This document shows, in pieces, positions 8,392 through 15,855 of a DNA stretch of 64,000 bases (position 1 is the stretch's first letter; every line of letters starts with the position of its first letter). Location: contig NZ_QMFY01000001.1 of assembly GCF_003286915.1 (NCBI RefSeq), forward strand, positions 806,001 through 870,000. Direction: 5' to 3'. The notes beneath the pieces were generated by a model. It saw nothing but the letters and a program-made list of their open reading frames with translations. It had not been told where the DNA came from and did no database searches. Position numbers and translations under genes: made by a program. Source of the stretch: Pseudochryseolinea flava (GTDB lineage Bacteria; Bacteroidota; Bacteroidia; Cytophagales; Cyclobacteriaceae).

Positions 8392-9621
8392 ATGATCAGA
8401 AAGATCGGTGTTTTGTTTTTCTTGTTTCTTTCGCTTCAATCCCGCGCGCAGAATCTCGGCTTTACCCTTCCGCCTGGTCAGCATAAAGTGGCTATACCTA
8501 TTGAGATTAATAACAATCTGGTTGTTGTGCCTGTCGTTTTGAATGAAGCATTGCCACTGAAGTTCATTATCGATACCGGCGTGAGAACAGCCATCCTCAC
8601 ACAAAAAACGTTCGCTGATATTTTAAATCTTCCGTATACACGTAAGTATACCATTGCCGGTCCTGGCGCAACAAAATCTATTGAAGCATTCATCACTACA
8701 AATGTTACCCTGCGACTACCCGGCGTGCTGGGGAGAGGCCACGCGTTATTAGTGCTCGCTGAAGATTATTTGGAACTTAGAAATTACCTTGGGACAGATG
8801 TACATGGCGTACTCGGTTATGAATTGTTCAGCCGCTTTATTGTTGATATAGATTACGAACGGAAATTGATGACCTTACGCACGCCCGAGAAATTTAAGAA
8901 GCGCTCAAAATTTCATACACTACCCATGACTGTGGAGGACACAAAGCCCTACATTAAAACTTCGGTGGTGATGAAAGATGGAAAAAAAATAAGCGTGAAG
9001 CTGTTGGTGGATTCTGGCGCAAGTCATAGTCTTTTGCTCGACCCGAATTCATCGGATGAAATACAAGTTCCTGAAAATACCGTTAGCAGTACCATTGGCA
9101 GAGGCTTGGGCGGGGAAATCACCGGAAAAGTTGGTAGGATCTCGTCGCTTAATATTGGCACGTACAGTGTTGATAAGCCACTGGCAAATTTCCCAGATCC
9201 GAATAGTTACGTCGACACATTAAAAATGAGTTCTGTTTATCGAAATGGAAGTTTGGGCGGAGAGATGCTCTCAAGATTTCATGTCATTTTCAATTTTCCG
9301 AAGGAGGAATTGTACGTTAAGAAGAACTCATATTTTAGAAAAAAATTTCATTACAATCTTAGCGGGGTGATTGTAAAAGCAAAGGGATCGCGTCTCGATG
9401 TTTTCGAAGTTCAAGAGATTCGCGAAAAGTCGCCGTCTGATGTTTGCGGCCTTCTTCCGGGAGATATCATACTAAAATTGAACGGGCTCGAAACAAAGCA
9501 GCTTACGTTGAATCTGATCAACGGCTTACTAAACTCCAAGCCTGGAAAGAAAATAAGACTTGAGATTGAAAGAAATGGCCAGCGCGTTAAGAAAGAATTT
9601 TTGCTGGCAGATCAAATCTAG
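8392..9621 (+). CDS. Secreted retropepsin-like aspartic protease with two DxG motifs and a PDZ domain
   Basis: A 409-residue protein with a signal peptide (MIRKIGVLFFLFLSLQSRAQ). Two aspartic protease-like domains are present in one chain: 'FIIDTGVRTAIL' with Asp61 and 'LLVDSGASHSLLL' with Asp207, each followed by hydrophobic-Gly flaps ('VHGVLGYELFSRF' and 'NGSLGGEMLSRF'). Retropepsins are normally homodimers with one Asp each, so this protein may form an intramolecular pair like pepsin. A C-terminal PDZ domain (about 325-405, 'GLLPGDIILKLNGL') probably binds substrate C-termini. Periplasmic or extracytoplasmic location is expected. It overlaps the convergent receiver-like gene by 4 nt at the stops. 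Confidence 0.82.
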   Translation: MIRKIGVLFFLFLSLQSRAQNLGFTLPPGQHKVAIPIEINNNLVVVPVVLNEALPLKFIIDTGVRTAILTQKTFADILNLPYTRKYTIAGPGATKSIEAFITTNVTLRLPGVLGRGHALLVLAEDYLELRNYLGTDVHGVLGYELFSRFIVDIDYERKLMTLRTPEKFKKRSKFHTLPMTVEDTKPYIKTSVVMKDGKKISVKLLVDSGASHSLLLDPNSSDEIQVPENTVSSTIGRGLGGEITGKVGRISSLNIGTYSVDKPLANFPDPNSYVDTLKMSSVYRNGSLGGEMLSRFHVIFNFPKEELYVKKNSYFRKKFHYNLSGVIVKAKGSRLDVFEVQEIREKSPSDVCGLLPGDIILKLNGLETKQLTLNLINGLLNSKPGKKIRLEIERNGQRVKKEFLLADQI

Positions 9622-10091
9622 CGCATAACCTTGAGCAGTTGTTGCTTACGTTTCTTATAAGCTTGATACAAGTACAACTGTGTTCTCCTGAGTTTCAATG
9701 AATTTTTGAGCGTGTTATACAAAGCTTCTGGCGAAAGGTTTTGTTTGAGGAGGTAGTCAAGAATACTTGAAGACCCCATCGCCTCTTTGTAATTGGAATT
9801 TTTCAAGACTGTAATCGGAACATCACGCGTCTTTTTATTGTGCGAAAGCGATTCGACAGCGGCGAGAAGCTCATGCTTTCCAATATTGTCGTCGATCAAG
9901 ATAAAATTTGGCCTGAAGCGCAGCAGGCGCTCCATGATCGATTTTAAATCAAAAGCACTTTCGGTAGTGATCTTATGGCCACGAATTTTATGAAGGTTAT
10001 CGAGCACACGCCCCATTTCAATGGGGTTGTTACCAATCAATAGAACATTTACTTGCTCTTTCACTTCTGCATTTTGTAATACTGTTTCCAT
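9618..10091 (-). CDS. Receiver-like (pseudo-response-regulator) protein
   Basis: A 157-residue protein if started at the ATG at 10091 (METVLQNAEV). The frame is open 35 residues further upstream, but that part looks non-coding. It shows the response-regulator order: strand 'VNVLLIGNNP', helix, strand with 'PNFILIDDNIG' (Asp at the phospho-acceptor position), 'VPITVLKNSN' and 'ILDYLLKQNLSPEALYNTL' (Lys in the usual strand-5 place shifted to Leu-Lys). The acidic pair normally after strand 1 is Gly-Asn-Asn, so phosphorylation may be impaired. The C-terminus is very basic (RRTQLYLYQAYKKRKQQLLK) and there is no DNA-binding domain. It is divergent from the FAD oxidoreductase gene, 104 nt apart. Confidence 0.65.
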   Translation of the reverse strand: METVLQNAEVKEQVNVLLIGNNPIEMGRVLDNLHKIRGHKITTESAFDLKSIMERLLRFRPNFILIDDNIGKHELLAAVESLSHNKKTRDVPITVLKNSNYKEAMGSSSILDYLLKQNLSPEALYNTLKNSLKLRRTQLYLYQAYKKRKQQLLKVMR

Positions 10092-10195
10092 AAGCCAACT
10101 GATTAAATAAATATAACGTAAAACATAGCCCCTCAAGATTTGTTCCAGCGATATTTTTTTCACGAAATGAGTGTTTCTACCTTTAGGTAATCTCA

Positions 10196-11332
10196 TTGCG
10201 GGAGAAAGAAATTTCCAGTTTGAAAAAGATAATCATCATCGGCGGTGGCCTTGCAGGATTAATTACAGCGGTTAAGCTAATTGATGCTGGAATACCTTGT
10301 ACCGTGATCGAGAAGAAATCATTTCCTTTCCATCGCGTCTGTGGAGAATATGTCTCAAATGAAGCCGCGCCCTTTCTAAAAAACAACGGGCTTTTTCCGG
10401 TTGATATCGACCATAGCAATATTAACACCCTGTTGCTTTCATCTACTCAAGGCAAAAGTGTAACAATACCCCTTGCCATGGGAGGCTTTGGAATAAGTCG
10501 TTATGCATTTGATGATTTTATCTATCGTGAAGCCCTACGTCGCGGCGTAACGTTCATGTTAAACACGGAAGTATCATCTGTTCAATTCAACGAAGATCAG
10601 TTTGTGTTGAAAGCCGGGCACGAAACACTCGTTGCTGATGTAGTCGTTGGGGCTTTTGGAAAACGATCACGTCTCGATGTATCCATGCAGCGGGCCTTCA
10701 CAAGACATCGGTCTCCCTATGTGGGCGTGAAGTATCATGTTCGTATCAATCATCAACCAAACGTAATAGGTCTTCATAATTTTCAGGGTGGATATTGTGG
10801 AATCAGTAACATCGAAGAGGGCAAAACAAATTTATGCTACCTTACCCACCGCGATCAGCTGAAACGATTCGGAAACATTCCACAATTCCAGGAAGCAATC
10901 TTATGGGAGAACCCGTATCTAAAAAATATTTTTAATGAAGCCGAGTTTTTATTTCACGCGCCCGAGACGATAAATGAAATTACTTTCGAGACTAAATCCG
11001 TTGTCGAAGATCATTTGCTGATGACGGGTGATGCCGCAGGGATGATTACTCCGTTGTGTGGTAACGGAATGGCGATGGCGATTCATAGCGCAAAGTTGTT
11101 ATCTGAACTGTTGATCCGTTTCGTTCATGATCATCGTTTTACGCGTGAAAAGCTTGAACACTCTTACGAAGAGGCGTGGCGAAAACATTTTGCAATGCGC
11201 CTATGGCGCGGAAGACATATCCAGCGATTATTCGGTCACCCGTGGGCGTCATCTTTTGCTGTTTCATTGGCGAGAGGTAGTGCACCTGTAGCCAAACAAC
11301 TGGTGCGGATGACGCACGGCGAAAATTTTTAG
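10196..11332 (+). CDS. FAD-dependent oxidoreductase (geranylgeranyl reductase/hydroxylase-like)
   Basis: A 378-residue flavoprotein. The N-terminal Rossmann motif is 'IIIIGGGLAGLITAVKLIDAG' (GxGxxG at residues 16-21), followed by the Glu that holds the ADP ribose (VIEKK). 'HRVCGEYVSNEA' and the second FAD motif 'LLMTGDAAGMITPLCGNGMAMAI' place it with the geranylgeranyl-reductase/aromatic hydroxylase group. No signal peptide. It starts with TTG at 10196, or a second TTG at 10220 just before the Rossmann strand; there is no ATG in frame nearby. Flavoproteins of this group accompany type III PKS genes elsewhere (for example the srs operon of Streptomyces), and one lies 2 kb downstream here, so a role as tailoring hydroxylase or reductase is a reasonable inference. 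Confidence 0.8.
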   Translation: MREKEISSLKKIIIIGGGLAGLITAVKLIDAGIPCTVIEKKSFPFHRVCGEYVSNEAAPFLKNNGLFPVDIDHSNINTLLLSSTQGKSVTIPLAMGGFGISRYAFDDFIYREALRRGVTFMLNTEVSSVQFNEDQFVLKAGHETLVADVVVGAFGKRSRLDVSMQRAFTRHRSPYVGVKYHVRINHQPNVIGLHNFQGGYCGISNIEEGKTNLCYLTHRDQLKRFGNIPQFQEAILWENPYLKNIFNEAEFLFHAPETINEITFETKSVVEDHLLMTGDAAGMITPLCGNGMAMAIHSAKLLSELLIRFVHDHRFTREKLEHSYEEAWRKHFAMRLWRGRHIQRLFGHPWASSFAVSLARGSAPVAKQLVRMTHGENF

Positions 11333-11426
11333 CTTCTCATTTTATTATTAGTTGCCGTTGATATAACAGAACCGTTTTCAATGACAATTTTGTTTTATCT
11401 TCCATCCGTACAAACCTAACCTTACT

Positions 11427-12416
11427 ATGCAAACTGGAAATAATCGTCGCGATTTTCTAAAGTCATTGGGAATAATGTCACTTGGTGCTTTTGCTGGAAG
11501 TTCAATCGTTTCGGCCTGCGCGGGAAAAACGGGAGACGCAGCGCATGCGACAGATAGCGCCTCCGTTATCGCGACAGAGGCGAAGCCATTGTTCTTTAAA
11601 ATATCATTGGCCGAGTGGTCTTTGAACAAATCTATTTTTGGCGGGAAGATGTCTAATCTTGATTTCCCTGCAAAAGCAAAAAATGATTTTGGTGTTTCTG
11701 CCGTTGAATATGTAAATCAATTTTTCAAAGACAAGGCAACCGATCAGGCTTATCTTGCGGAATTGAAGAAACGTTGTGATGACGTGGGCGTAACGAGCGT
11801 ACTAATCATGTGCGATGGCGAAGGTGGACTTGGTGATACAGATGAGAAAAAAAGAATTCAAGCGGTTGATAACCATAAGAAGTGGGCGGATGCTGCGAAG
11901 TTTTTAGGGTGTCATTCTATTCGCGTAAACGCCTATGGTGAAGGTACTGCTGAAGAGGTTAGCAAAACGGCAACGGATGGATTACGTCGGTTATCTGAAT
12001 ATGGAAAGACGCTAGGGATAAATGTAATCGTTGAGAACCACGGAGGTTATAGCTCTAACGGACAATGGTTAAGTGAAGTGATTAAAAATACCGGCATGGA
12101 GAATTGTGGTACACTTCCTGACTTCGGAAATTTCTGTATAAAAGGACAGCCTGATAAATGCGATGAGTGGTATGACCGCTACAAAGGTACCGAAGAAATG
12201 ATGACCTATGCGAAGGGCGTTAGCGCCAAGACATTCAACTTCGACGATGCCGGAAATTGTATCGAAACAGATTATGTGAAGATGCTGCAGATTGTGAAGA
12301 ACGTCGGCTACAATAACTATATCGGTATTGAGTATGAAGGAAGTTCTTTATCCGAAGAAGAAGGTATTCTCAAAACGAAGGCGTTGCTCGAACGCGTTGG
12401 TGGTACCCTTTCATAG
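11427..12416 (+). CDS. Tat-exported lipoprotein, sugar phosphate isomerase/epimerase-like TIM barrel
   Basis: A 329-residue protein. The N-terminus carries a twin-arginine signal 'NNRRDFLKSLG' (RR at 7-8) and a lipobox 'IVSAC' (Cys31), so it should fold in the cytoplasm, cross by Tat and be lipid-anchored. The remainder is an AP-endonuclease-2/xylose isomerase-like TIM barrel: 'FKISLAEWSLNKSIF', 'GVSAVEYVNQFF', 'GCHSIRVNAYGEG', 'INVIVENHGGYSS' (Glu as metal ligand), 'GTLPDFGNFC' (Asp) and 'YIGIEYEGS' (Glu). Such proteins bind a divalent metal and isomerise or epimerise sugars; the substrate is unknown. It sits between two genes of the PKS locus, but an exported sugar enzyme has no obvious place in polyketide synthesis, so it may be a bystander. 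Confidence 0.83.
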   Translation: MQTGNNRRDFLKSLGIMSLGAFAGSSIVSACAGKTGDAAHATDSASVIATEAKPLFFKISLAEWSLNKSIFGGKMSNLDFPAKAKNDFGVSAVEYVNQFFKDKATDQAYLAELKKRCDDVGVTSVLIMCDGEGGLGDTDEKKRIQAVDNHKKWADAAKFLGCHSIRVNAYGEGTAEEVSKTATDGLRRLSEYGKTLGINVIVENHGGYSSNGQWLSEVIKNTGMENCGTLPDFGNFCIKGQPDKCDEWYDRYKGTEEMMTYAKGVSAKTFNFDDAGNCIETDYVKMLQIVKNVGYNNYIGIEYEGSSLSEEEGILKTKALLERVGGTLS

Positions 12417-12425
12417 AAACAAACT

Positions 12426-13319
12426 TTACTGGAACAGTTGGATTAACTGTGTGCTGTAGAGCATGAGGTAGAGGAAAAATCCATTTAAACATGTGGCTGA
12501 AATAAAATTCAGCCACATCGTATGACTAAAATCTGCCTTCCTCTCATCGCCGAGTATTTGAAAAAACCAATAGGCAAAGAAAATTAACACAGGCGCGAGT
12601 GCTATCATGAAATGGAAAAAGTATTTCACGTTTAAGAAGGTGATAAAATAGTAGCCAAAGCCGGCGGTAGCAATTGCGAATGCAGCACCCGTAAAAAGAA
12701 AAGTGCCTTTGATACCCAACTTCAAACTCAGCGTGATGTCGCCGCGCTTGGCATCTTCCTCATGTTGATATACTTGAGTCATTGGATAGTTTGCCCATAA
12801 CATCATTGTCGTTAACGCACCTGGAACAAGGACTTCAGGTTTTACGATGTTTTCAATTCCATATTTGTTAATGCCAACGTAGCACATCACAAAAGAGAAG
12901 AGTCCTTGAAAAATTCCAGCAACAAGCCAACTGGTAATGGCATATTTTTTTAGCCTGATGGAAGGATGACTATACGCTTTCGACACCAGTCCATAGACCA
13001 AGAGCAATATGGAGAAAGTGAGATTGATCTTAATGTAGCCGATGATCATGGCTAATAAATCAAAAAGAATTGAAAGATAATAGAGACCCTTATTCACAGG
13101 CGGAGGATTCTTTAACCCACCGATGCTTTTTTCGTCTTTGTCGAAGTAGCTGTTATAGCCATTACTCGCAGGGTACAAGAGAAAGTGTACAATAAGAAAT
13201 GTCCAGAGTAAGGATGATTCGCTAAAGTTCGGTGACGATGCCGCGGAAAATAAGAAAACCGGAAGAAGGAAGTAGGAAAAAGGAATTCGAAGGTGTAGCC
13301 AAGAGGAACGTGAAAGCAT
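12426..13319 (-). CDS. UbiA-family prenyltransferase
   Basis: A 297-residue integral membrane protein with about eight or nine hydrophobic segments. The first Asp-rich motif is 'SNGYNSYFDKDEKSIGG' (N56-x3-D60-x-D62), and the second is 'YQHEEDAKRGDITL'. Both are where UbiA enzymes hold Mg2+ and the prenyl diphosphate. UbiA enzymes transfer a prenyl chain to an aromatic or quinone-like acceptor in the membrane. The gene diverges from the type III PKS with only about 71 nt between starts, and ends 9 nt from the convergent TIM-barrel gene. The PKS neighbour suggests a phenolic or pyrone acceptor (inference). A role in menaquinone or heme pathways is the alternative, but none of those genes is adjacent. 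Confidence 0.85.
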   Translation of the reverse strand: MLSRSSWLHLRIPFSYFLLPVFLFSAASSPNFSESSLLWTFLIVHFLLYPASNGYNSYFDKDEKSIGGLKNPPPVNKGLYYLSILFDLLAMIIGYIKINLTFSILLLVYGLVSKAYSHPSIRLKKYAITSWLVAGIFQGLFSFVMCYVGINKYGIENIVKPEVLVPGALTTMMLWANYPMTQVYQHEEDAKRGDITLSLKLGIKGTFLFTGAAFAIATAGFGYYFITFLNVKYFFHFMIALAPVLIFFAYWFFQILGDERKADFSHTMWLNFISATCLNGFFLYLMLYSTQLIQLFQ

Positions 13320-13390
13320 AATAACAAATTTAATAGCCTCATCGGAACGTGGATGTCGAAAATATAGTTTTTTAAGATATATTGAAATGC

Positions 13391-14494
13391 ATGAGTTATA
13401 TCACCGCCATCGGTAAAGCAAATCCTTCTATTCGTATTTCGCAATCCGACCTTGCTGACTTTATGATCCAGGCGATGCAGCCAGACGCAGCTACCGCCAG
13501 GATACTAAGAACTGTTTTCAAAGCAAGTGGAATCGATTATCGTCATACGGTAATTGAAGACTACGCAAAAAAGAAAGACTACACTTTTTTTCCCAACACG
13601 CCGAATATCGAGCCATTTCCGTCCACCGAACAGCGGATGAAGATTTTTTACGAGCATGCACTACCCTTAAGTGTTGCCGCCGTAAAGAATATGGTCGTTA
13701 ACAATCCGTCGTATGATCGAAAGTCTATTACCCATTTGATCGTTGTGTGTTGTACCGGAATGTATGCTCCCGGACTTGATATCGAGTTAGTAGAGCAGCT
13801 GGAATTACCGACAACGGTGCAACGTACGAGTATTACGTTCATGGGGTGCTACGCCGCATTTAATGCCCTGAAGGTTGCTGATGCATTCTGCGCAAAAGAT
13901 GAAAATGCGAAAGTACTGATTGTTTGTACCGAGTTATGTAGCTTACATTTTCAAAAATCTATCAGTGAAGATAATTTGCTAGCAAACGCGTTGTTCGCCG
14001 ATGGTTCTGCCGCAGTATTGGTCGAGGCGCAGTCTGACACCAAAGTAAAATTAAAGCTTGAAGCATTTTATAACGATCTTGCCAGAGAAGGTGCCAACGA
14101 TATGGCGTGGCATATTGGCAATGTCGGTTTTGAGATGAAATTATCCACCTATGTTCCTGACATCATCAAGAAAGGAATTGGTGAATTAACTGATAAGCTG
14201 TTGCGTAAAATTCAGATGCGCATCGAAGATATTCGCTATTACGCGATTCATCCGGGTGGAAAAAAAATCCTTACTGCAATCGAAGAGGCGTTGCTGATTG
14301 GTCCAGGGCAAAACTTTGCAGCATATCACACGCTTCGAAACTACGGAAACATGTCATCGCCCACGGTGTTGTTTGTACTTCGTGAGATTTTTGATAAGCT
14401 TCAGCAGGACGATCACGATAAACATATTTTAAGCTTCGCGTTCGGTCCGGGGTTAACACTTGAGAGTATGTTGTTACAAATTAAAATGCGATAG
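13391..14494 (+). CDS. Type III polyketide synthase (chalcone synthase-like)
   Basis: A 367-residue enzyme of the chalcone/stilbene synthase superfamily, started at the ATG at 13391 (MSYITAIGKANP); a TTG lies 3 codons upstream. The catalytic triad is visible: Cys153 in 'FMGCYAAFNAL', His287 in 'YAIHPGGKKIL' and Asn320 in 'YGNMSSPTVLF'. The C-terminal 'FAFGPGLTLESML' corresponds to the conserved GFGPG loop of the family. Type III PKSs extend a CoA- or ACP-bound starter with malonyl-CoA and cyclise to resorcinols, pyrones or phloroglucinols; the starter here, perhaps a long acyl chain, cannot be told from sequence. The methyltransferase gene follows 2 nt after the stop and the UbiA gene is divergent, making a compact biosynthetic locus. 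Confidence 0.93.
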   Translation: MSYITAIGKANPSIRISQSDLADFMIQAMQPDAATARILRTVFKASGIDYRHTVIEDYAKKKDYTFFPNTPNIEPFPSTEQRMKIFYEHALPLSVAAVKNMVVNNPSYDRKSITHLIVVCCTGMYAPGLDIELVEQLELPTTVQRTSITFMGCYAAFNALKVADAFCAKDENAKVLIVCTELCSLHFQKSISEDNLLANALFADGSAAVLVEAQSDTKVKLKLEAFYNDLAREGANDMAWHIGNVGFEMKLSTYVPDIIKKGIGELTDKLLRKIQMRIEDIRYYAIHPGGKKILTAIEEALLIGPGQNFAAYHTLRNYGNMSSPTVLFVLREIFDKLQQDDHDKHILSFAFGPGLTLESMLLQIKMR

Positions 14495-14496
14495 AC

Positions 14497-15204
14497 ATGC
14501 CCAACTTCAATGTAAGGTCTGATGAGCTCGAAGTGATGGATGATTTAAACTGTGCGGGAGAAGTCGTCAGGCAAACACTTCATGAACTCGAAGTGATTAA
14601 CACTTGGTTGGGCGGAAACGCAGTGACGATGGATGGTGTTAAGAAGTTGTTTAAGAATATAGCTACACAAAAGGAAATTGTGATTGCAGATTTGGGGTGT
14701 GGCCGTGGAGATATGTTATTGAGCATTGATCGATGGGCGCTAAGGAATGGGTATCGTGTGAAGTTGTTGGGATTCGATGCTAATCCAAATATCGTTGCAG
14801 AGGCCCGTAGTCATGCAAGATCAAATCCGAGAATTACTTTTGAAGTGCTCGATATTTTTTCGGCACGCTTCCAAGAATTACAATTCGATGTTGTCACTGG
14901 AACGCTTTTTTATCATCATTTTACTTCTGATCAACTTGCCGCATTTTTTACTGCCTTGCGAAAGCGAGTGAAGATTGGAATACTGGTCAACGATATTCAT
15001 CGCCATCCTCTTGCTTATTATTCCATTAAACTTTTAACAGGCTGGTTTTCGCGGTCGCCGATGGTGAAGGCTGATGCGCCACTTTCCGTAATGCGTGCCT
15101 TTCATAAGCATGAATTAAAAGAAATATTTTCGGCGGCGGGCTTTAGACATGTCGAAATTCGCTGGAAATGGGCATTTCGATGGCAAGTGATTGCCCATGC
15201 ATAA
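14497..15204 (+). CDS. SAM-dependent methyltransferase next to the type III PKS
   Basis: A 235-residue class I methyltransferase. SAM motif I is 'VIADLGCGRGDML' (62-74). 'KLLGFDANPNIVAEAR' gives the acidic residue of motif II, and 'FDVVTGTLFYHHF' corresponds to motif IV. The start codon is 2 nt downstream of the PKS stop, so the two are translationally close and almost surely one operon. The likely task is O- or C-methylation of the polyketide product, as SrsB does for alkylresorcinol-derived phenolic lipids in Streptomyces (analogy, not shown). No membrane segment is evident. Confidence 0.85.
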   Translation: MPNFNVRSDELEVMDDLNCAGEVVRQTLHELEVINTWLGGNAVTMDGVKKLFKNIATQKEIVIADLGCGRGDMLLSIDRWALRNGYRVKLLGFDANPNIVAEARSHARSNPRITFEVLDIFSARFQELQFDVVTGTLFYHHFTSDQLAAFFTALRKRVKIGILVNDIHRHPLAYYSIKLLTGWFSRSPMVKADAPLSVMRAFHKHELKEIFSAAGFRHVEIRWKWAFRWQVIAHA

Positions 15205-15291
15205 GGGGTCATGACAAGCGAAATGATCACGGTGGGAAAAATTTTATCTGGCACAATTTTTCGTACTTTCGTTATGAAAATGAAATGTCAC

Positions 15292-15855
15292 ATGAAGCCG
15301 CTACGCAATTTTTCAGCATTCGCTATCCTCTTCATTTTCTATTCTTGTGCCTCCAGTCCATTCGGTTCTAAAGTCAAAGAGCCCTTCCAAGGAAATGCAT
15401 ATGAATCTAACAATCGCTTTTGGAGAGGCACTGGAAAAGGAGAAAGCATAAAAGATAATATCGCGAGAAGTAAAGCAGATCTGGAAGCAAAATCTGTGTT
15501 AGCTGGCCAAGTTAATACGACGATGAAACAAGTGGCCGATCAATACCTGGGTCAAACAGAAAATGAGAATGCTGCCGATGTCGCGGATAAATTTCAAAGT
15601 TTGGTTCGTCAGGTGATGAACACTGATATCGCCGATTTGCGAAAAATTGGTGAGAAGAAATTTTTGAATGATAAAACGAAAGAATATACCGTGTTCATGG
15701 CATATGAGATAAAGAAAAATGCAATGCTTCGTTTCATGAAGAAGCAGGCAAAAGTTGACAAGACGATCGATGAACGTCAACGAGAAGTAATCGAAAAGAT
15801 TATTGATGAAGAAATTGCGAAGGCAGATCAAGAAGATGCCGAAGGAAAGGATTAG
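15292..15855 (+). CDS. Lipoprotein of unknown function
   Basis: I start it at the ATG at 15292 (MKPLRNFSAFAILFIFYSC), giving 187 residues with a lipobox Cys at position 19; two further ATGs lie up to 6 codons upstream and the frame opens at 15211. The mature protein is charged and mostly helical, with 'NRFWRGTGKGES', 'KADLEAKSVLAGQVNTTMKQVADQYLG' and a Lys/Glu-rich C-terminal helix. The repeated short-helix pattern recalls LPP20-like outer membrane lipoproteins, but I do not assign a family. A strong terminator follows 24 nt after the stop, so it ends the PKS-methyltransferase direction of transcription or forms its own unit. TACTTTCG upstream at about 15264 is a near match to a -7 element. 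Confidence 0.7.
   Translation: MKPLRNFSAFAILFIFYSCASSPFGSKVKEPFQGNAYESNNRFWRGTGKGESIKDNIARSKADLEAKSVLAGQVNTTMKQVADQYLGQTENENAADVADKFQSLVRQVMNTDIADLRKIGEKKFLNDKTKEYTVFMAYEIKKNAMLRFMKKQAKVDKTIDERQREVIEKIIDEEIAKADQEDAEGKD

What the first reader, a model, noticed from the sequence alone, without database searches (positions are those of the whole stretch)
10196..15204. Candidate type III PKS / UbiA / methyltransferase / FAD-enzyme biosynthetic locus
Seen: a complete type III PKS (Cys153, His287, Asn320), a methyltransferase 2 nt downstream, a UbiA prenyltransferase divergent from the PKS by about 70 nt, and an FAD oxidoreductase 2 kb upstream. Known: the Streptomyces srs operon pairs a type III PKS with a methyltransferase and a flavin hydroxylase to make phenolic lipid quinones. 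Inference: this locus makes a methylated, oxidised and perhaps prenylated alkylresorcinol, pyrone or quinone-like lipid. A UbiA partner would make it a meroterpenoid-type product. The Tat-exported TIM-barrel gene between them may be a bystander.
Basis: partly seen in the sequence, partly recalled or inferred. Interest (0 to 1): 0.72.

Follow-up and report, generated by a model that had tools for sequence, protein, structure and literature searches.

The report
Conserved phenolic-lipid gene cluster in Bacteroidota
Four neighbouring genes probably build an oily phenolic compound in this bacterium and many of its relatives; similar pathways are known in other bacteria, but this version has its own, unusual prenyl-transfer-type membrane enzyme and its product is not yet known.

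Summary
The locus idea survives its refutation tests. Beside the PKS in 140 loci of relatives: MT 111, FAD 99, divergent UbiA 63, TIM barrel 8. In 7 of 20 PKS loci outside the order, UbiA-PKS-MT-FAD run on one strand. In 59 hand-picked genomes (39 with the PKS, 20 without) the partners co-occur even when unlinked: UbiA 37/39 v 1/20, FAD 34/39 v 0/20, MT 24/39 v 1/20; the single UbiA without PKS has lost its motif residues. A control UbiA paralogue (39/39 v 9/20) and the TIM gene (17/39 v 8/20) track it less or not at all. The PKS is in 224 of 291 sampled genomes of the order. The UbiA is neither MenA nor heme O synthase; it keeps most donor-site residues but has Gln-His where canonical enzymes have an Asp. 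Best reading: a Bacteroidota variant of the srs/agq phenolic-lipid pathway giving a methylated, oxidised, probably prenylated alkylresorcinol or quinone. The product is unproven; my paper searches found no description.

The parts
10220..11332 (+). FAD-dependent oxidoreductase (GG-reductase / UbiH-like), probable ring hydroxylase
   Evidence: FAD_binding_3 52 bits; GG-red-SF 103.4 bits, below its cut-off 158.8; orthologue in 99/140 PKS loci; 34/39 v 0/20 genomes
11427..12416 (+). Tat-type TIM-barrel (AP_endonuc_2) gene; bystander, not part of the pathway
   Evidence: 8/140 loci; 17/39 v 8/20 genomes
12426..13319 (-). UbiA-superfamily membrane protein with NSxxDxD / QHxxD motifs, divergent from the PKS
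   Evidence: PF01040 68.5 bits; 37/39 v 1/20 genomes; motif residues invariant in 94/94 aligned sequences; AF2 pLDDT 90.7, best fold match AfUbiA
13320..13390 (.). 71-nt divergent intergenic region, presumably a shared promoter
   Evidence: coordinates only; promoter not tested
13391..14494 (+). type III polyketide synthase, catalytic Cys153-His287-Asn320, Cys183 at the PKS18 Cys205 position
   Evidence: Pfam PF00195/PF02797; best solved relatives by profile Steely1 and PKS18; AF2 pLDDT 89.4; 224/291 sampled genomes of the order
14497..15204 (+). SAM-dependent methyltransferase, 2 nt after the PKS
   Evidence: Methyltransf_25 52 bits; PRK06202 137.5 bits, below its cut-off 243; orthologue in 111/140 PKS loci

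Best explanation
The locus encodes a Bacteroidota version of the bacterial phenolic-lipid pathway (srs / agq type). Proposed steps: (1) the type III PKS extends a long-chain acyl starter with malonyl units and cyclises it to an alkylresorcinol, alkylresorcylic acid or alkylpyrone; (2) the FAD enzyme hydroxylates or oxidises the ring; (3) the methyltransferase adds a C- or O-methyl group; (4) the membrane UbiA enzyme attaches a prenyl group, giving a prenylated alkyl-(hydro)quinone-like membrane lipid. Shown here: the four genes, their conserved linkage, their co-occurrence across genomes even when scattered, catalytic residues of the PKS, most donor-site residues of the UbiA. Inferred: substrate, ring type, order of steps, prenylation, biological role. 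A PKS kept in 77% of sampled genomes of the order looks more like a standard cell component than an occasional antibiotic (inference).
For: Linkage in 140 loci: MT 111, FAD 99, UbiA 63. Same-strand UbiA-PKS-MT-FAD in 7 of 20 loci outside the order: L244, L246, L247, L249, L251, L254, L259; in these 7 no other gene family within about 6.5 kb recurs in more than 3. Co-occurrence: UbiA 37/39 v 1/20, FAD 34/39 v 0/20, MT 24/39 v 1/20 (Fisher p 3e-12, 2e-11, 2e-5, uncorrected for kinship and for my choice of genomes), with controls. The one PKS-negative genome with a UbiA homologue (G164) has Ser, Ser, Phe, Leu, Gln at positions 56, 60, 116, 185, 189. UbiA in 11/11 genomes outside the order whose PKS lies in the window's PKS clade, 2/21 (distant) with other PKS clades, 0/20 without. 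PKS: closest solved relatives Steely1, PKS18, Ectocarpus PKS-I; Cys183 (141/141) aligns with PKS18 Cys205, the residue changed to Phe in 1tee. In 5 of the 12 loci fetched, orthologous FAD-MT stand with a divergent type III PKS and a further gene row, which in the one annotated (L273) is FabZ-like, ketosynthase, ACP and PPTase, pointing to an ACP-borne acyl starter. UbiA keeps the equivalents of AfUbiA R22, N68, D72, Y139, S140, D202 (94/94 each; roles from PMC4106721 passages).
Against: No product, no enzyme assay. FAD is missing in 5/39 and MT in 15/39 PKS genomes by these searches, so a fully decorated end-product cannot be universal. Two PKS genomes (G213, G223) lack the UbiA. The first Asp of the second UbiA motif is replaced by Gln185 and the AfUbiA D76 position varies, so prenyl transfer is not assured; EcMenA mutants of the equivalent of D198 lose all or nearly all function (PMC4106721). 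NCBIfam places the FAD enzyme nearest the geranylgeranyl reductase family (below cut-off), so a reductase role is possible. The long-chain starter rests on one aligned residue and on relatives, not on a measured tunnel.
Confidence: 0.62

Rival explanations
1. Same PKS-MT-FAD phenolic-lipid pathway, but the UbiA-fold protein is not a prenyltransferase onto the ring: it is a UbiA-type terpene cyclase or transfers another group, and the final product is a conjugate or a mixture.
For: Motif II reads Q-H-x-x-D in 94/94, resembling the QDxxDxxxD of UbiA-type terpene synthases more than DxxxD (PMC9835599 passages). Only one weak NCBIfam match.
Against: Motif I keeps N56 and D60 (94/94), whereas the cyclases have N-xxx-(G/A)-xxx-D; the Tyr116/Ser117/Arg11 donor-site residues are kept.
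Confidence: 0.15
2. The FAD enzyme is a geranylgeranyl-reductase-type enzyme that saturates the prenyl chain added by UbiA (as in a dihydrogeranyl product), not a ring hydroxylase.
For: Best NCBIfam match is GG-red-SF, 103.4 bits, below the 158.8 cut-off.
Against: Orthologous FAD stands with MT and a divergent type III PKS in 5 loci whose genomes lack the UbiA subfamily (0/5), so it acts without UbiA there; FAD is missing while UbiA is present in 5/39 genomes.
Confidence: 0.12
3. The genes are neighbours by shared ancestry of the region only; PKS-MT is a pathway, UbiA and FAD are unrelated.
For: Further genes (8392-9621 protease, 9618-10196, 15211-15855) are also syntenic in some relatives: 36, 28 and 34 of 140 loci.
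Against: FAD, UbiA and MT reach other orders as one gene row and co-occur with the PKS when unlinked; the protease and its neighbours were not traced genome-wide.
Confidence: 0.04
4. The PKS makes a non-lipid aromatic (for example a DpgA-like dihydroxyphenylacetyl unit or tetrahydroxynaphthalene), prenylated by UbiA to a small meroterpenoid.
For: The best NCBIfam model is DpgA, 142 bits against a cut-off of 425.
Against: Closest solved relatives by profile are Steely1, PKS18 and Ectocarpus PKS-I, and Cys183 matches PKS18 Cys205; that these enzymes take acyl starters is recalled. DpgB/C/D-like partners were not searched for.
Confidence: 0.07

Closest known systems
srsABC phenolic-lipid operon, Streptomyces griseus
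   Same: Type III PKS (SrsA) whose alkylresorcinols are oxidised to alkylquinones (PMC10896814 section 14), with the hydroxylase SrsC (PMC8086630 passage); SrsB as methyltransferase is recalled. Original paper not held
   Different: No UbiA as far as recalled; sequence relation of the three proteins not tested here
agq cluster, Actinoplanes missouriensis (alkyl-O-dihydrogeranyl-methoxyhydroquinones)
   Same: Alkylresorcinol from a type III PKS, then prenylated and hydroxylated (PMC10896814 section 14; title of Awakawa 2011 seen in a reference list). That a UbiA-type enzyme does it is recalled
   Different: Whether its prenyltransferase shares the QHxxD motif is untested; original paper not held
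Loseolamycin locus, Micromonospora endolithica
   Same: UbiA family prenyltransferase and putative methyltransferase genes near the type III PKS losA (gene table passage of PMC7587189)
   Different: Has an acyl-CoA dehydrogenase next to the PKS; no FAD hydroxylase in the table lines that I saw
hidABC (hierridin) and planctomycetal alkylresorcinol operons
   Same: MT + oxidoreductase + type III PKS three-gene operon, PKSs shown to make alkylresorcinols (PMC10896814 passages)
   Different: No UbiA in the described operon; a prenyltransferase in one cyanobacterial cluster only (PMC8086630 passages)
Canonical UbiA prenyltransferases (AfUbiA, ApUbiA, MenA)
   Same: Fold (Foldseek TM 0.60-0.72 to AfUbiA/ApUbiA), donor-site Arg/Asn/Asp/Tyr/Ser
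   Different: DxxxD motif replaced by QHxxD; D76 position variable; Asp62 invariant

Membership tests
Type III polyketide synthase | CHS/STS N and C domains with Cys-His-Asn triad | tested here: met
   (C153 141/141, H287 and N320 140/141)
Long-chain (alkylresorcinol/pyrone) type III PKS | Acyl tunnel / acceptance of long acyl starters | tested here: inconclusive
   Cys183 aligns with PKS18 Cys205; model coordinates not available for a tunnel measurement
DpgA | NCBIfam NF042429 cut-off 425 bits | tested here: not met
   142 bits
srs-type PKS-MT-FAD gene set | Three genes together | tested here: met
   window and relatives
srs-type PKS-MT-FAD gene set | Orthology of each protein to SrsA/B/C | not tested
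   reference sequences were not at hand
srs-type PKS-MT-FAD gene set | Product is a methylated alkylresorcinol/quinone | not testable with these tools
   needs chemistry
agq-type (PKS + hydroxylase + MT + UbiA) | UbiA co-inherited with the PKS | tested here: met
   37/39 v 1/20; 11/11 in the same PKS clade outside the order
agq-type (PKS + hydroxylase + MT + UbiA) | UbiA prenylates the alkylresorcinol-derived ring | not testable with these tools
   needs an assay
UbiA superfamily | PF01040 domain and fold | tested here: met
   68.5 bits v cut-off 34.2; AfUbiA best fold match
UbiA superfamily prenyltransferase | NDxxDxxxD and DxxxD motifs | tested here: not met
   NSxxDxD and QHxxD, invariant in 94/94; other donor-site residues kept
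MenA / heme O synthase | NCBIfam equivalog match | tested here: not met
   separate MenA (L265) and heme O synthase (L263) in the genome
Geranylgeranyl reductase family (FAD) | TIGR02032 cut-off 158.8 bits | tested here: not met
   103.4 bits

The most novel reading that the evidence does not exclude
Most Cytophagales, and further Bacteroidia outside that order, make an undescribed class of prenylated polyketide (hydro)quinone-like membrane lipid as a standard cell component, beside menaquinone, using a dedicated UbiA subfamily with a new QHxxD metal motif that has evolved together with one clade of type III PKS.
Probability: 0.3. Interest if true: 0.78.

Novelty: new variant of a known kind. 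Interest (0 to 1): 0.5.

Why it matters
Type III PKS phenolic lipids are reported to affect beta-lactam sensitivity in Streptomyces griseus and to carry electrons in Mycobacterium tuberculosis (as stated in PMC10896814 section 14). A PKS found in 224 of 291 sampled genomes of an order, with its partner genes following it, and no product found by my paper searches, suggests an overlooked membrane lipid. Several relatives that carry the genes are named isolates (for example Chryseolinea serpens, Pontibacter and Hymenobacter species), so one gene deletion plus lipid LC-MS could settle it. The UbiA subfamily also offers a natural variant of the metal site for studying how these enzymes bind diphosphate.

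Tried and rejected
Rejected: the TIM-barrel gene as a pathway member (8/140 loci; 17/39 v 8/20 genomes). Rejected: UbiA as MenA or heme enzyme. Rejected: accidental neighbourhood. Considered: EboC-type UbiA with EboE-type TIM barrel (recalled); the EboC model was not among the matches at E 0.001, and the TIM gene is not conserved, so dropped. Looked for clues in neighbours of UbiA, FAD and MT genes that stand away from the PKS (20, 14 and 6 loci): the only families seen in more than three loci are in the same five UbiA loci L214-L218. Plasmid search with the UbiA: no match; with the PKS: 175 records (20 listed), among them a Psychrobacter plasmid with PKS (49% identity), an FAD gene (24%) and an MT (27%). 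Literature: the searches listed no paper that I could recognise as describing a type III PKS with UbiA in Bacteroidota; I judged most by title and start of abstract, and three listings were capped (15 of 23, 20 of 111, 10 of 21). One paper shows antiSMASH type III PKS regions in Reichenbachiella (passages of PMC10752948). The library lacks most subscription papers, so this is weak evidence of absence.

E-value limits differ by query: UbiA and control UbiA 1e-12, FAD 1e-30, MT 1e-15, TIM 1e-50. The control UbiA matches of six PKS genomes are weak (E 1e-16 to 1e-28), so they may be paralogues. PKS-negative means no match at E 1e-20 or 1e-30.
Full report
WHAT IS THERE. The window lies at G000:C11:806001-870000 of a 6.5-Mb genome; its closest PKS relatives are a Flammeovirgaceae MAG and Chryseolinea/Chryseosolibacter, Cytophagales. 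Gaps: PKS stop to MT start 2 nt, UbiA start to PKS start 71 nt. In the 111 loci with both genes the median gap from PKS stop to MT start is -4 nt, with 101 of 111 between -30 and +50, which suggests coupled translation.

LINKAGE. Outside the order, 20 PKS loci of the phylum were read: 10 have the UbiA, 8 have all four genes, and in 7 of these UbiA-PKS-MT-FAD run on one strand (L244, L246, L247, L249, L251, L254, L259). Flanking genes: no other family within about 6.5 kb of the PKS recurs in more than 3 of these 7 loci; a ~170-aa and a ~125-aa family recur in three each and a ~490-aa family in two. So the recurring unit is the four genes.

CO-OCCURRENCE WHEN UNLINKED. Many Cytophagales keep the PKS away from its partners. 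I searched 59 whole genomes: 39 with the PKS (37 mostly chosen for missing or scattered neighbours, 2 controls) and 20 without. UbiA: 37/39 v 1/20. FAD: 34/39 v 0/20. MT: 24/39 v 1/20. The UbiA of the exceptional PKS-free genome, G164, is 33% identical and has lost N56, D60, Y116, Q185 and D189. Controls on the same genomes: another UbiA-family gene of the window's genome, 39/39 v 9/20 (six of the 39 weak); the TIM gene, 17/39 v 8/20. Of the nine PKS-free genomes that keep the control UbiA, none has the FAD gene, one has an MT match (G018) and one the degenerate UbiA (G164), so genome reduction alone does not explain the pattern. In five genomes only PKS and UbiA were found (G014, G047, G102, G049, G180), and two PKS genomes have no UbiA (G213, G223); of the three partners UbiA is the most constant. 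Outside the order the UbiA subfamily is in 11/11 genomes whose PKS falls in the window's PKS clade, in 2/21 (distant matches, E 1e-36 and 1e-39) with other PKS clades, and in 0/20 without PKS (the clade of 57 rows has SH-aLRT 91, that of 58 with the Psychrobacter PKS 98).

HOW COMMON. The PKS is found in 224 of 291 sampled genomes of the order at E 1e-20 and in 168 of 395 of the phylum sample at E 1e-30 (this includes divergent PKS clades).

THE ENZYMES. PKS: triad conserved (141/141 and 140/141); AlphaFold model pLDDT 89.4; best solved relatives by profile are Steely1, PKS18 and the Ectocarpus enzyme. Cys183, invariant in 141/141, aligns with PKS18 Cys205, the residue changed in the C205F structure 1tee; that this residue lines the acyl tunnel is recalled. 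In 5 of the 12 loci (guessed to be Flavobacteriaceae-like; genomes unnamed) the FAD and MT orthologues (475-485 and 257-273 bits) stand with a divergent type III PKS and a further row of genes; in the one that I annotated, L273, these are a FabZ-like dehydratase, a FabF-like ketosynthase, an acyl carrier protein and a phosphopantetheinyl transferase. This suggests an ACP-borne acyl starter. FAD enzyme: the nearest models are the geranylgeranyl reductase family, QhpG and UbiH-type hydroxylases, below their cut-offs; because it accompanies PKS and MT in those five genomes, which lack the UbiA subfamily, I favour ring oxidation.

THE UBIA. It is one of six UbiA-family matches in the genome, one of them below the cut-off; the others are heme O synthase, a PRK12872-type (GGGP-transferase-like) prenyltransferase, MenA, DPPR synthase, and a protein with a sub-threshold LA_0991-type match. 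The locus protein matches none of those models at E 0.001. The model (pLDDT 90.7) resembles AfUbiA and ApUbiA (TM 0.60-0.72). In AfUbiA the ligands are N68, D72, D198, D202, with Y139/S140 and R22/K146 at the substrate (PMC4106721 passages). The locus family keeps N56, D60, D189, Y116, S117, R11 and K124 in 94/94 sequences (window included) but has Gln185-His186 in place of the first Asp of motif II, a variable residue at the D76 position, and an invariant Asp62. The mapping rests on alignment and spacing, and the K146 match is approximate. UbiA-type terpene synthases have QDxxDxxxD as motif II but lack the motif-I Asp (PMC9835599 passages), so the family looks like a prenyltransferase with a changed second metal site rather than a cyclase; the second reading is kept as a rival.

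KNOWN RELATIVES. PKS-MT-oxidoreductase triads that make alkylresorcinols or alkylquinones are known from Streptomyces (srs), cyanobacteria (hid) and planctomycetes (PMC10896814 passages and section 14); prenylated products come from agq in Actinoplanes (same source), and a UbiA gene stands near losA in Micromonospora (PMC7587189 table). The Bacteroidota set is therefore a variant of a known kind. A Psychrobacter plasmid carries a 49%-identical PKS with an FAD gene (24%) and MT (27%), and no UbiA match was found in the plasmid collection; Deinococcus and Methylobacterium plasmids carry more distant triads, the Deinococcus FAD gene scoring only 26 bits.

VERDICT.

Noticed in passing
L269, L270, L272, L273, L279: Gene row FAD-MT-divergent type III PKS followed by FabZ-like, KAS, ACP and PPTase genes (annotated in L273 only; the others by order and rough size): same FAD and MT families with a different PKS clade and a dedicated acyl-ACP module, UbiA subfamily not found in these five genomes.
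   Followed up: partly
L281:5995-8818: Antarctic Psychrobacter urativorans plasmid with a type III PKS 49% identical to the window's, plus FAD and MT genes (24% and 27%): possibly a transfer between phyla.
   Followed up: partly
L284:6405-7262: UbiA homologue in a PKS-free genome (G164) with its motif regions degenerate; its present role, if any, is unknown.
   Followed up: partly
L252, L255, L257, L261: Outside the class, the PKS-MT row is preceded by one family of ~450-aa genes, a MatE exporter in L252 (the only one annotated), and followed by an FAD_binding_3 gene in L252: the product may be exported there.
   Followed up: partly
window 8392-10196 and 15211-15855: Aspartyl-protease/PDZ gene, a 192-aa gene without a Pfam match and a 214-aa gene are syntenic in 36, 28 and 34 of 140 loci.
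   Followed up: partly
L271, L274, L275, L276, L280: A further PKS clade (29-34% identity) without FAD or MT of these families within 4.5 kb; in L275 next to an ICMT-like methyltransferase.
   Followed up: no
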